A DNA stretch of 23,453 nucleotides from Nitrospinae bacterium RIFCSPLOWO2_12_FULL_45_22 (GTDB lineage: Bacteria; 2-12-FULL-45-22), in contig MHDQ01000134.1 of assembly GCA_001803565.1 (NCBI GenBank), positions 1-23,453 on the forward strand, given 5' to 3'. The translations under genes and the position numbers were made by a program. Position 1 is the stretch's first letter. Every line of letters starts with the position of its first letter. Below the pieces are notes generated by a model. That model saw nothing but the letters and a program-made list of their open reading frames with translations. It had not been told where the DNA came from and searched no databases. Below, one piece after another: positions 19,554 to 23,453 of the stretch.

Positions 19554-22500
19554 ATGGAAAAAAGACTTAGAGACTTAATAGAGCTACCATCGGTCAGGAC
19601 TGTTATCCAACTGTCAGACACCTCTGACCCAAAGCTGAAGAAATTAATAGGGGAGAGCTTTGTCCTTACCCAGGAGGTCTATTTTCACTTCCTCACTATA
19701 CTTCAGAGTATCAAGGAAGGGCAAGGGGAGGGGTTTTTCGTCCTGGGGAACTATGGTTCAGGTAAATCCCATTTTCTTAGTATCCTGGATCTCCTCTTGA
19801 GAGAAGAGGGGGTATGGGGATTCCTGGTGGAGCAAAGGCCGGCCCTGCAAGAGTATAGCCAATGGATCCAGCCCGGGGCATATTTAGTAGCCAGTGATAG
19901 TTTAGTAGACTATCAGGCCTGGGAGAGGTTGGAAGATATAATATTGACAAAGATACAAGAGCGTCTCCAGAGGGATTATAACATCAAGGTGGCGTATGAC
20001 TGGACAGAACAATTAAATAAAGACCTCAAACTAATACTAAAAGAGAGGTATCCGAAAGCGCTGGCCTCTTTTTTAAAGAAGATAGGCTGGGAAGATGAAG
20101 AGCCACTATTTGAGCCCAGCAATTACCCGGTATTAGAAAACCTTATCCTGGAACTGAATCTGCCTTATAAGCTACGGCCCAGCCGCCACCAGGTCTTCCA
20201 GCACCTGCAGGCCCTTTTGGAAACCGGCCCGCTTCAGGGGATAGTAATATTGTTGGATGAGCTATCAGAGTTTTTGCGCTCCAAACCTACGGGCCGGGCC
20301 TTTAACGAAGATATTCGCTTCTTGCAATTCCTGGGTGAATGGGCCAACAAACATTCCCTATGGATAATTGCCACCTTACAGGAGCGGATAGAGGATACAG
20401 GTGATATCCCACAAGAGGCCTTCAATAAGATTAAAGACCGCTACCCTAAGACCATTTCCCTTACCGCCAGGCATATAGAAGAGCTGATCCACCAGCGCTT
20501 AATCCGAAAGAAACCCGGGGCAGAGGAGATTATTAATCAGACCTATCAGGATTTTAAGACCGCCTTCTCTACCTGGATGGTTCCTCAAGATAGGTTTTAT
20601 CGCCTCTATCCCGTACATCCCCAGACCCTGAAGTTCCTTGACCAACTAAAACCCCTCTTTTCGCAACATCGGGGTATAGTAGATTTTATTCATTATCAAC
20701 TCCAGGGGGACCCCGGACGACGCATACCGGGTATGCTGGAGCTGCCGTCAGATATACTCTTAACACCAGATAGTATCTTTGATCACTTCCTCCGCCGGAT
20801 CAAAGAGCGGGTAGAAACTAATCCTTACAGCGAGGTGGTCTACAAGTATTATGAGGAGTCGGGGGAAAGTATTTTCCCTGAGCCCGAAGAACGGGCCTTA
20901 GCCCTAAAAATTATCAAGACCCTGATCCTGCAGGCCATATCTCCCTGGAGATACCAGATCAGTTTGCGGGAGCTGGCCGAGACGCTTCTCACAAAAGTTT
21001 CTACCTGGGACTCAGAGGTAAACTACCAGTATATCCGGGATATTTGCGAGAAGCTGTACAAACAAGGCTCCTATATAGGGAAAAAGCCAGGGGCTGGCCC
21101 GCTGGAAGACATTTATTATATAGACCTGGAAGCCGACATAAACCTGATAATAAGGCGTAAGGTAGAATATATTGAAAAAGGTCTCGAGCCAGGGGACTCC
21201 CGGATATTCTATCGCCTGGCCCATTATTTAGATTCTCCACAACTGCCCCTGGCATGGCTCCACCGGGAAGGGAAGGGCAAACGGGAGATAAAATGGCAGA
21301 ATACCCCCCGCTGGGGTTATCTGATATTATCCGATCTCAGAGAAAATTCTTTAGACCTTATAGCCTCTCTGATAGAGGAATTTAATAATACTGAACTGGA
21401 CTTTGTCCTTTTCCTGGCCACTCCTTTTCAACTAAGGGCTCAGCAAGAATATCTCCTGGAAACTCTCCTCCCCTATCTCCGTTCTCATGGCCCGGAGGAT
21501 ACTTCCCAACATATCCCCTTGATCTTCTGGCTCCCCGGCCCGGTAGAAGATGAAAAAGCCTTACGACGGGCTTATGCCCACTCCATATTACTGGAAGAGA
21601 GCAAAAAAGACTCTACCCAGCTAGGACAACGCCTCCATAGCCATCTGGAAGCTATTATGGCCGATGATAAGCGGGTAGTTAAAGAGGTTTTTACTGTGGC
21701 TTATTATGACGGTACTTTAATCTCTAACCTAATGGAGCAGGAGCGTTCTTTAGGGGAGATTGGGCAGTTGTCCTTTGATCGCAGCCTGCAAGAGATCATC
21801 CCGCCGGTCCTGGCCCAACGCTTCCCCAGGCATCAGCAGCTTGCCCCTTATACCGATATTTACTTGAGAGGCACAGCCCAGGAATTAATTAGCTCTTTCT
21901 TAAAACCCGGTCAGATTGTCTTCCCTAAAGGTACGAGCACCAGCCTTAAATTACTTATTGAAAGCTATCTAAGACCCCTTAAAATTATCAAAAATATCCC
22001 TAATGGCTTCCATCTGGCAGTGGATCCCAGAAAGAGCTCCATAGTAGCCTATTATTTACAGAGCTTAGAGGAGGGACGAGTAGACTTGAAAACCCTTTAT
22101 TGGCGGCTACGAAAAAGCCCATATGGAATAAGCTTTGATCAATTTCAACTCCTGACCCTAGCCCTCATCTTCAGTGGCCAGATCATACCTTATAGCCAGG
22201 GTAAGCGCAAACCCCTGGAAGAGATCACCACCCTGGACCTGGCTAATATCTCCGAGATCGGCCCGGGAGAGCTTTTATCTGCCACCCAGCAAAAGTCTCT
22301 TCAGCTTATCCCCCTTATACCACCGCAGTTAAAGAAAGAACCCCTTACTATCCAGCAACAACAGGCCATCTGGGAATATTTGAGACAGTTTAAAGAAGAG
22401 AGACTCAATGAGCTGAACCGCCTGAGGACGATTTTCGAGCACGCCCAGCAATATCCGGCAGGAAGTGGTCTGGATTGGGCAATGATAAATGAAGAGATAG

Positions 22501-23453
22501 GAAAAATGTCCCAATTTCTGGAAGCAATAGAGCCTTCTTATTCGTCGAAAGAAGGGCTGGAAAGGTTTTTGGAGAGCTACCAGCAATATCCCCTGATCGG
22601 GAGCGTTTTGCAGCAATACCAGACTATCAAAAACTTCTTTTTTAATTACCTGGATAAATATTTCCTCATTTCCCGCTACTTGCAGGAAAGGGGCTGGAGT
22701 CTACCTTCGGAGGAGAGATATCAGGCCCTTGCCGCGCAGCGGGAGGGTTTGATAGAGCGGTTAAGAGAGTCCGATAAGGTCTTCGATGAAGAATATCTGG
22801 AGGCGCTTTTTCAGGCCTTCGAACCCTTTAAAGAAAACTATATTACCTTATATCAGGAGGGGCACCGTAAGTACTGCTCTCCAGAACGATTCACTGCCTA
22901 CCATCAACTCCGTAAATCTCCTGATTATCGGCTGCTGAGTCTGTTGGCCCAAATAGAGCCTATCTCGGTAAAAGACGATCTGGTAAAGGTAGAGCGGCAG
23001 TTGGCCAGGATTGATCAATACCAGTGCCCGGGGCCCGACCCCCAGGTCTTGCAGCACCAACCCTTCTGTCTATGCGGTTACCAGTTAGGCCAGTCTCTAG
23101 ATTTAGCCCCGGTAGCGGAACTAGAAGCTATTATCCAAAAAGGGATAAGGGAATATGTCCAGACCCTCCAGGAACCTATGTATTGCCAGAAGATAATGGA
23201 TCATATAGCTGATTTGGAAGTAATAGGCGACAACCAGGTAGCTGATGTTTTAAAGAAGGTGCTGGAGATCAAGCTGGACGATCCGGGCCAGGAGACAGGA
23301 TTAGCTAACCTAATATCGCCCCGGGCAATCCAGAGTATTAATGAGGCTCTAAAGGGCCACCCACAGCCAGTAGTGGCCCGTGACCTCGATGAGCTTTATG
23401 AAAACCTGGTAGAGAGAACCTTTTCCAGAAAGAACCTTTTAAAAATCTTTAAT
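19554..23453 (+). CDS. Giant P-loop ATPase, DUF6079/PglY/BrxC-like (3' end beyond window)
   Basis: An uninterrupted frame of exactly 1300 codons from ATG 19554, still open at the right edge. The N-terminus reads MEKRLRDLIELPSVRTVIQL, then a SFVLT segment, Walker A GNYGSGKSH at 65-73 and Walker B IVILLDELSEF at 230-240 (Asp235, Glu236), followed by a sensor-1-like strand LWIIATLQE (269-277). The rest is long, helical, Leu/Gln/Glu-rich and without motifs I know, apart from a possible zinc site Cys1158, Cys1172, Cys1174. From memory, this layout and the early motifs match DUF6079 proteins and the PglY/BrxC ATPases of BREX phage-defence systems; I could not search this. No strong ribosome-binding site is seen. 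Base composition looks like that of its neighbours. Alternatives are another STAND-like or DNA-handling ATPase family. Coding status is certain; function is not. Confidence 0.85.
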   Translation, partial: MEKRLRDLIELPSVRTVIQLSDTSDPKLKKLIGESFVLTQEVYFHFLTILQSIKEGQGEGFFVLGNYGSGKSHFLSILDLLLREEGVWGFLVEQRPALQEYSQWIQPGAYLVASDSLVDYQAWERLEDIILTKIQERLQRDYNIKVAYDWTEQLNKDLKLILKERYPKALASFLKKIGWEDEEPLFEPSNYPVLENLILELNLPYKLRPSRHQVFQHLQALLETGPLQGIVILLDELSEFLRSKPTGRAFNEDIRFLQFLGEWANKHSLWIIATLQERIEDTGDIPQEAFNKIKDRYPKTISLTARHIEELIHQRLIRKKPGAEEIINQTYQDFKTAFSTWMVPQDRFYRLYPVHPQTLKFLDQLKPLFSQHRGIVDFIHYQLQGDPGRRIPGMLELPSDILLTPDSIFDHFLRRIKERVETNPYSEVVYKYYEESGESIFPEPEERALALKIIKTLILQAISPWRYQISLRELAETLLTKVSTWDSEVNYQYIRDICEKLYKQGSYIGKKPGAGPLEDIYYIDLEADINLIIRRKVEYIEKGLEPGDSRIFYRLAHYLDSPQLPLAWLHREGKGKREIKWQNTPRWGYLILSDLRENSLDLIASLIEEFNNTELDFVLFLATPFQLRAQQEYLLETLLPYLRSHGPEDTSQHIPLIFWLPGPVEDEKALRRAYAHSILLEESKKDSTQLGQRLHSHLEAIMADDKRVVKEVFTVAYYDGTLISNLMEQERSLGEIGQLSFDRSLQEIIPPVLAQRFPRHQQLAPYTDIYLRGTAQELISSFLKPGQIVFPKGTSTSLKLLIESYLRPLKIIKNIPNGFHLAVDPRKSSIVAYYLQSLEEGRVDLKTLYWRLRKSPYGISFDQFQLLTLALIFSGQIIPYSQGKRKPLEEITTLDLANISEIGPGELLSATQQKSLQLIPLIPPQLKKEPLTIQQQQAIWEYLRQFKEERLNELNRLRTIFEHAQQYPAGSGLDWAMINEEIGKMSQFLEAIEPSYSSKEGLERFLESYQQYPLIGSVLQQYQTIKNFFFNYLDKYFLISRYLQERGWSLPSEERYQALAAQREGLIERLRESDKVFDEEYLEALFQAFEPFKENYITLYQEGHRKYCSPERFTAYHQLRKSPDYRLLSLLAQIEPISVKDDLVKVERQLARIDQYQCPGPDPQVLQHQPFCLCGYQLGQSLDLAPVAELEAIIQKGIREYVQTLQEPMYCQKIMDHIADLEVIGDNQVADVLKKVLEIKLDDPGQETGLANLISPRAIQSINEALKGHPQPVVARDLDELYENLVERTFSRKNLLKIFN

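What the first reader, a model, noticed from the sequence alone, without database searches (positions are those of the whole stretch)
19554..23453. Giant BREX/PglY-like ATPase beside the origin: possible start of an undescribed defence locus
Seen: a frame of at least 1300 codons with intact Walker A (GNYGSGKS) and Walker B (LLDE), a sensor-1-like strand, then a very long helical part and a late C-x13-C-x-C cluster. Known: large P-loop ATPases of the BrxC/PglY type are core parts of BREX loci, which also need a methyltransferase (PglX) and usually a PglZ phosphatase-fold protein; DUF6079-type ATPases also occur in poorly described loci with helicases. Inference: the left flank holds no BREX partner (only csp, mutase and a regulator), so this is the first gene of an operon that continues to the right. 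It may be a non-canonical system.
Basis: partly seen in the sequence, partly recalled or inferred. Interest (0 to 1): 0.8.

Follow-up and report, generated by a model that had tools for sequence, protein, structure and literature searches.

The report
PglZ-less BrxC-like ATPase, TPR partner
The giant ATPase is real and resembles the motor protein of BREX phage defence, but it does not start a defence operon: it is a trimmed member of a family for which I found no published description, in which most members fuse this ATPase to the BREX nuclease domain PglZ and pair it with one conserved TPR-repeat protein, with no methyltransferase recurring beside it.

Summary
In detail: an intact DUF6079/BrxC-like AAA+ ATPase starts at 19554 and runs off the window. 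Contig C273 overlaps the window end by exactly 80 bp and completes the gene (1323 aa); homology crosses the junction. The next genes are a DMSO-reductase-type oxidoreductase pair, then MutS2, so the "first gene of a defence operon" reading fails.

The relatives are the interesting part. A divergent subfamily (motif DELSEFL…NEDxRFLQFLGE; 46 loci, at least a dozen phyla, not found in viral or phage collections) is mostly 1.4-2.1 kaa proteins in which this ATPase is fused to a C-terminal PglZ domain with a complete alkaline-phosphatase-type active site. 36 of 46 loci encode one orthologous TPR protein nearby, often overlapping the gene. Of nine other genomes searched, four hold it elsewhere, including the window's own (C173, cut by the contig end). 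ATPase and TPR distances correlate at r = 0.93. No methyltransferase recurs among neighbours.

The window copy, like its sister L050, lacks PglZ and is unlinked from its TPR gene. Best reading: a reduced member of a BREX-core-like "TPR + BrxC-PglZ" system. The architecture is well supported; the immune role is inferred only.

The parts
19554..23453 (+). BrxC/PglY-like AAA+ ATPase gene (DUF6079), residues 1-1300 of 1323; the last 23 codons and the stop are on overlapping contig G000:C273 (L003, about positions 81-152)
19746..19769 (+). Walker A GNYGSGKS (residues 65-72)
   Evidence: conserved columns
20250..20276 (+). Walker B and subfamily signature LLDELSEFL (residues 233-241)
19563..21131 (+). 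ORC/Cdc6-type AAA+ domain plus following wHTH region (residues 4-526) that superposes on BrxC 2-552
   Evidence: AF2 model m1cbe7cfb7280; VIA-align Z 23.0, 414 residues, rmsd 4.8; Foldseek top 5 all BrxC
23025..23075 (+). C-x13-C-x-C cluster (residues 1158-1174), late in the helical part, family-wide
   Evidence: 38 of 41 long members

Best explanation
The gene encodes a divergent BrxC/PglY-like AAA+ ATPase from a subfamily for which I found no description. Its usual form is one polypeptide, BrxC-like ATPase + helical connector + PglZ nuclease/phosphodiesterase domain, working with one dedicated TPR protein. SHOWN: BrxC-like fold; PglZ fold and intact active-site set in the relatives; TPR pairing by operon structure, by unlinked co-occurrence and by matching distances. 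INFERRED mechanism: the ATPase part oligomerises and engages nucleic acid through its AAA+ and wHTH parts; the TPR protein binds the ATPase and gates or senses (in the place that BrxB/iSTAND holds in BREX); ATP turnover licenses PglZ to cut nucleic acid. No MTase is linked, so self/non-self would have to be read another way (DNA ends, replication state, a phage protein sensed by TPR). In the window lineage (window + L050) PglZ was lost and the TPR gene lies elsewhere; this copy would then be a nuclease-less ATPase+TPR machine that either blocks or remodels without cutting, or borrows another nuclease. Immune role: about even odds.
For: Family: DUF6079 166.7 bits, PADLOC BrxC 122 bits, profile match to solved BrxC E 7e-17, fold match. 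Fusion: most loci give a C-terminal domain with D, T, D..H, DH, H columns conserved; its model (pLDDT 89) matches PorX Z 22.9 and BREX PglZ Z 17.7 over 419 residues. Pairing: TPR orthologue in 36 of 46 loci; unlinked orthologues in the genomes of the window (232 bits, next best 92), L050, L054 and L080; in one class of 40 genomes TPR hits above 200 bits occur only in the two genomes with the fused ATPase; distance correlation r = 0.93, 0 of 5000 permutations. Patchy distribution: 7 of 290 genomes, 2 of 40 in a class and absent from a congener. Occasional SNF2, RecQ, RecD2, Uma2 neighbours.
Against: No defence islands: 121 neighbours are mostly unrelated metabolic genes, and the recurrent PADLOC hits come from only three SNF2-bearing loci. 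No relative found in phages or viral contigs, and only distant DUF6079/BrxC on plasmids. No recurrent modification enzyme. The PglZ-less forms show that the nuclease is dispensable in some lineages. Genome G000 is 85% complete, so a PglZ gene or a second full copy next to the C173 TPR gene could be in a gap. The distance correlation partly reflects shared descent.
Confidence: 0.6

Rival explanations
1. First gene of a BREX or BREX-related defence operon that continues to the right.
For: BrxC/PglY-type profile hits.
Against: Contig C273 joins by an exact 80-bp overlap with homology continuing across the joint, and the following genes are a molybdoenzyme, its chaperone, MutS2 and a transporter. 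No PglZ and no second DUF6079 in the assembled genome.
Confidence: 0.04
2. A cellular, non-immune machine: an ATPase-TPR(-PglZ) complex for nucleic-acid turnover, signalling (PorX-like hydrolysis of oligonucleotides) or stress response.
For: Neighbours are ordinary chromosomal genes; no viral and no plasmid copies of the subfamily; L034 and L035 share neighbours; PglZ's closest solved fold is PorX, a response regulator.
Against: Patchy presence, absent in most of a class and in a congener; a tree that mixes phyla; the closest ATPase relatives of known role belong to defence systems.
Confidence: 0.38
3. The window copy is a decaying remnant: PglZ and TPR linkage lost, the ATPase on its way out.
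For: PglZ absent, TPR unlinked.
Against: 1323 intact codons; all ATPase motifs and the Cys cluster kept; sister L050 at 40% identity keeps the same truncated form with its own unlinked TPR gene, so the form has persisted over long divergence.
Confidence: 0.1

Closest known systems
BREX BrxC / PglY (DUF6079)
   Same: ORC/Cdc6-type AAA+ followed by a wHTH region and long helical parts; BrxC chains are the top fold matches
   Different: Falls far below the NCBIfam cut-offs for BrxC (86 of 400 bits) and PglY (19 of 1700 bits); own signature DELSEFL; relatives usually fused to PglZ; no PglX, BrxA, BrxB or BrxL linked
BREX PglZ (9zn5, 9nv3)
   Same: The fused C-terminal part of relatives superposes over 419 residues on PglZ 226-753, with the active-site set kept
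   Different: Covalently fused to the ATPase; the N-terminal ~220 residues of PglZ are missing (PglZ 1-98 is the part crystallised with BrxC and BrxB, PMC13326643). The window protein has no PglZ at all
PorX (T9SS response regulator with PglZ domain)
   Same: Closest fold for the PglZ core, Z 22.9 over 271 residues
   Different: No receiver domain; context unrelated
BREX-related (BR, DUF499) and BREX-related capture (BRC) systems (PMC12839542)
   Same: BrxC-type ATPase; in BRC and type-3 BR together with PglZ outside BREX
   Different: No DUF499 match, no MTase+helicase triad, no HerA/FtsK; the main text of that survey has no BrxC-PglZ fusion and no TPR partner

Membership tests
DUF6079 (Pfam PF19557) | Score above the curated cut-off | tested here: met
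   166.7 bits against 23
BrxC (NCBIfam NF033441) | Score above the curated cut-off | tested here: not met
   86 bits against 400
PglY (NCBIfam NF047891) | Score above the curated cut-off | tested here: not met
   19.3 bits against 1700
BREX system | BrxC-type ATPase | tested here: met
   fold and profile, as a divergent relative
BREX system | PglZ in the locus or genome | tested here: not met
   none in the window, in C273 or in the assembled genome by PF08665 and by a family-specific profile; genome 85% complete
BREX system | Modification enzyme (PglX or PAPS reductase) in the locus | tested here: not met
   none among the flanking genes of the joined locus that were annotated; none recurrent among neighbours of the relatives
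BREX-related (DUF499) systems | DUF499 ATPase with MTase and helicase | tested here: not met
   no DUF499 hit at E 0.01, no such neighbours
TPR + BrxC-PglZ subfamily described here | DELSEFL...NEDxRFLQFLGE ATPase | tested here: met
TPR + BrxC-PglZ subfamily described here | Orthologous TPR gene in the genome | tested here: met
   C173:5851-6681, 232 bits over 273 of 330 positions, cut by the contig end
TPR + BrxC-PglZ subfamily described here | Fused C-terminal PglZ | tested here: not met
   window protein ends at residue 1323, where the connector would begin; same in sister L050
Anti-phage defence | Protects against phage or plasmid | not testable with these tools
   needs an experiment

The most novel reading that the evidence does not exclude
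An MTase-free, two-gene system, TPR protein + single-chain BrxC-PglZ, spread over at least a dozen bacterial phyla, that reduces BREX to ATPase plus nuclease with a TPR sensor in place of BrxB; and a lineage, seen in this window, in which the same machine runs without its nuclease and with the two genes unlinked.
Probability: 0.5. Interest if true: 0.75.

Novelty: new variant of a known kind. Interest (0 to 1): 0.6.

Why it matters
How BREX restricts phage, and what BrxC does in it, is still open. A natural one-chain BrxC-PglZ fixes their stoichiometry and contact, and the absence of a linked methyltransferase would separate restriction from modification. The PglZ-less lineage asks directly whether the ATPase with its partner can act without the nuclease. 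The 46 loci here give a ready set for tests in laboratory strains.

Tried and rejected
Phages (tblastn) and viral contigs (two scans): no relatives. Plasmids: only distant DUF6079/BrxC, at most 30% of the query covered. PglZ-like hits in the genomes of L050 and L053 (703 and 693 aa frames) lie in what looks like a separate BREX-like locus with a helicase, so they are not a split-off domain. I first read the PglZ-less forms as having lost TPR too (Fisher p 2e-5 for linkage); that is true of linkage only: the window and L050 genomes keep the TPR gene elsewhere, and with three independent changes the tree test has no power. No convincing TPR or PglZ remnants beside the window gene. The end of C173 overlaps no other contig. 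Armatimonadetes L072/L082 lack the DELSEF and Cys signatures and sit on long branches; their membership is unsure. The Pfam and PADLOC tallies of neighbours used a meaningless alignment only as a container for 121 proteins.

Full report
OBSERVATION. The window is contig C134 of a 3.67-Mb, 321-contig genome that is 85% complete. Walker A, Walker B, the sensor-like strand and the C-x13-C-x-C cluster are at residues 65, 233, 270 and 1158. Pfam gives DUF6079 with 166.7 bits; PADLOC BrxC models give up to 122 bits and SspC 37; NCBIfam BrxC and PglY stay far under their cut-offs.

WHAT FOLLOWS THE WINDOW. The last 80 bases of the window are the first 80 of contig C273, and of no other contig in the bin. 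Joined, the frame ends 23 codons later (1323 aa). The joint is believable because the 20 residues after it align with those of homologues. Then come a DMSO-reductase-type-II chaperone, its molybdoenzyme, MutS2, an EmrB-like transporter and oxidoreductase genes. The predicted defence operon to the right does not exist, if the joint is right.

RELATIVES. PF19557 in 290 genomes found six proteins with our signature besides the window's. Altogether 46 loci including the window. The tree (quick method) places the window with L050 (SH-aLRT 95), inside a set of 15 that mixes phyla.

FUSED PglZ. Most full-length members are 1.4-2.1 kaa. Their last ~450 residues carry D, T, D..H, DH, H columns. The profile finds PorX (E 3e-9) and PglZ chains; the model (pLDDT 89) matches PorX at Z 22.9 over 271 residues and BREX PglZ at Z 17.7 over 419. 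The PglZ residues covered are 226-753, so PglZ's N-terminal part is absent; PglZ 1-98 is the part crystallised with BrxC and BrxB in Acinetobacter BREX (PMC13326643). That fits a covalent fusion replacing a bridge; this last step is inference.

TPR PARTNER. Clustering the neighbours of 46 loci gave one recurrent gene: a 300-400 aa TPR protein (Pfam), by profile in 36 loci, usually just upstream and often overlapping by 4-40 nt, in one clade divergent with 66-189 nt between. The profile was built on linked copies, so linkage counts are partly circular. Independent support: a 16-row profile found single strong unlinked orthologues in the genomes of L050 (286 bits), L054 (253), L080 (228) and the window (232), each well above the next TPR protein, and, in one class of 40 genomes, hits above 200 bits in exactly the two genomes with the fused ATPase. 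ATPase and TPR distances correlate at 0.93 over 38 loci. The genomes of L034, L035, L036 and of L072, L082 show no such orthologue; these also lack PglZ beside or in the ATPase (L036 is short).

THE WINDOW COPY. It ends where the connector to PglZ would begin, as does L050. No PglZ is found in the assembled genome by Pfam or by the family's own profile, and no second ATPase. Its TPR orthologue is the last gene of contig C173 (5851-6681, cut by the contig end), 23 bases after a CoA-transferase-like gene; what follows it is unknown. Its best BLAST match is the TPR gene of L050. The simplest history is loss of PglZ and unlinking in the common ancestor of the two; the gap after C173 leaves open a second, complete copy. 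G+C and third-position G+C of the gene (47%, 53%) are close to those of its neighbours, so there is no sign of recent import.

STRUCTURE. The AF2 model of residues 1-1199 (pLDDT 88; pTM 0.49, so domain positions are not to be trusted) matches BrxC first, Z 23.0 over 414 residues, then ORC/Cdc6 (Z up to 14.8), over residues 4-526. The rest was barely tested by that search.

MECHANISM. Shown: ATPase type, PglZ domain with intact catalytic set in relatives, TPR pairing. Inferred: oligomeric ATPase on nucleic acid, TPR as sensor or gate, PglZ as the cutting part (Type I BREX PglZ is reported as a metal-dependent nuclease, PMC12205998). Immunity is about even odds: distribution is patchy and the nearest kin of known role are defence proteins, but the neighbours are ordinary genes and no phenotype is known.

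PRIOR ART. The largest recent BREX survey (PMC12839542) describes DUF6079/BrxC, PglZ, BR and BRC systems; a search of its main text shows no BrxC-PglZ fusion and no TPR. Other searches of the held library found none. Subscription papers, supplements and preprints were not searched, so novelty is provisional.

Noticed in passing
L052:9377-12049, L055:6924-9575, L068:6091-8547: A SNF2-type helicase (819-891 aa) sits beside the TPR/ATPase-PglZ genes in Desulfobacteraceae and Thermodesulfovibrionia; possible third component in that lineage.
   Followed up: partly
L052:1213-3435, L067:14947-17133, L059:11826-12371: RecQ, RecD2 and a Uma2-type putative endonuclease directly next to the system, one locus each.
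   Followed up: partly
L034:10687-11289 and L035:8360-9070: The PglZ-less ATPases of G220 and G078 have a small protein with an N-terminal membrane-like segment directly upstream in place of TPR, and share two further neighbours (PaaI-like, and a 104-108 aa protein).
   Followed up: no
L075:16803-17168: A second, short PglZ-like frame (102 bits) about 2.5 kb after the fused gene.
   Followed up: no
L149:5840-10877, L151:5597-9682: The genomes of L050 and L053 also hold a separate BREX-like locus (PglZ of about 695 aa with a helicase), so the two can coexist in one genome.
   Followed up: partly
L048:11983-12327 (same in L046, L056): A 114-aa protein without Pfam match in three Halanaerobiales, 4-8 nt after the gene where measured.
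   Followed up: no
window 23374-23453 / L003:1-80: Exact 80-bp overlap between contig ends, i.e. an assembly-graph break inside the ATPase gene close to the place where fused relatives go on into PglZ; strain variation there is possible.
   Followed up: partly
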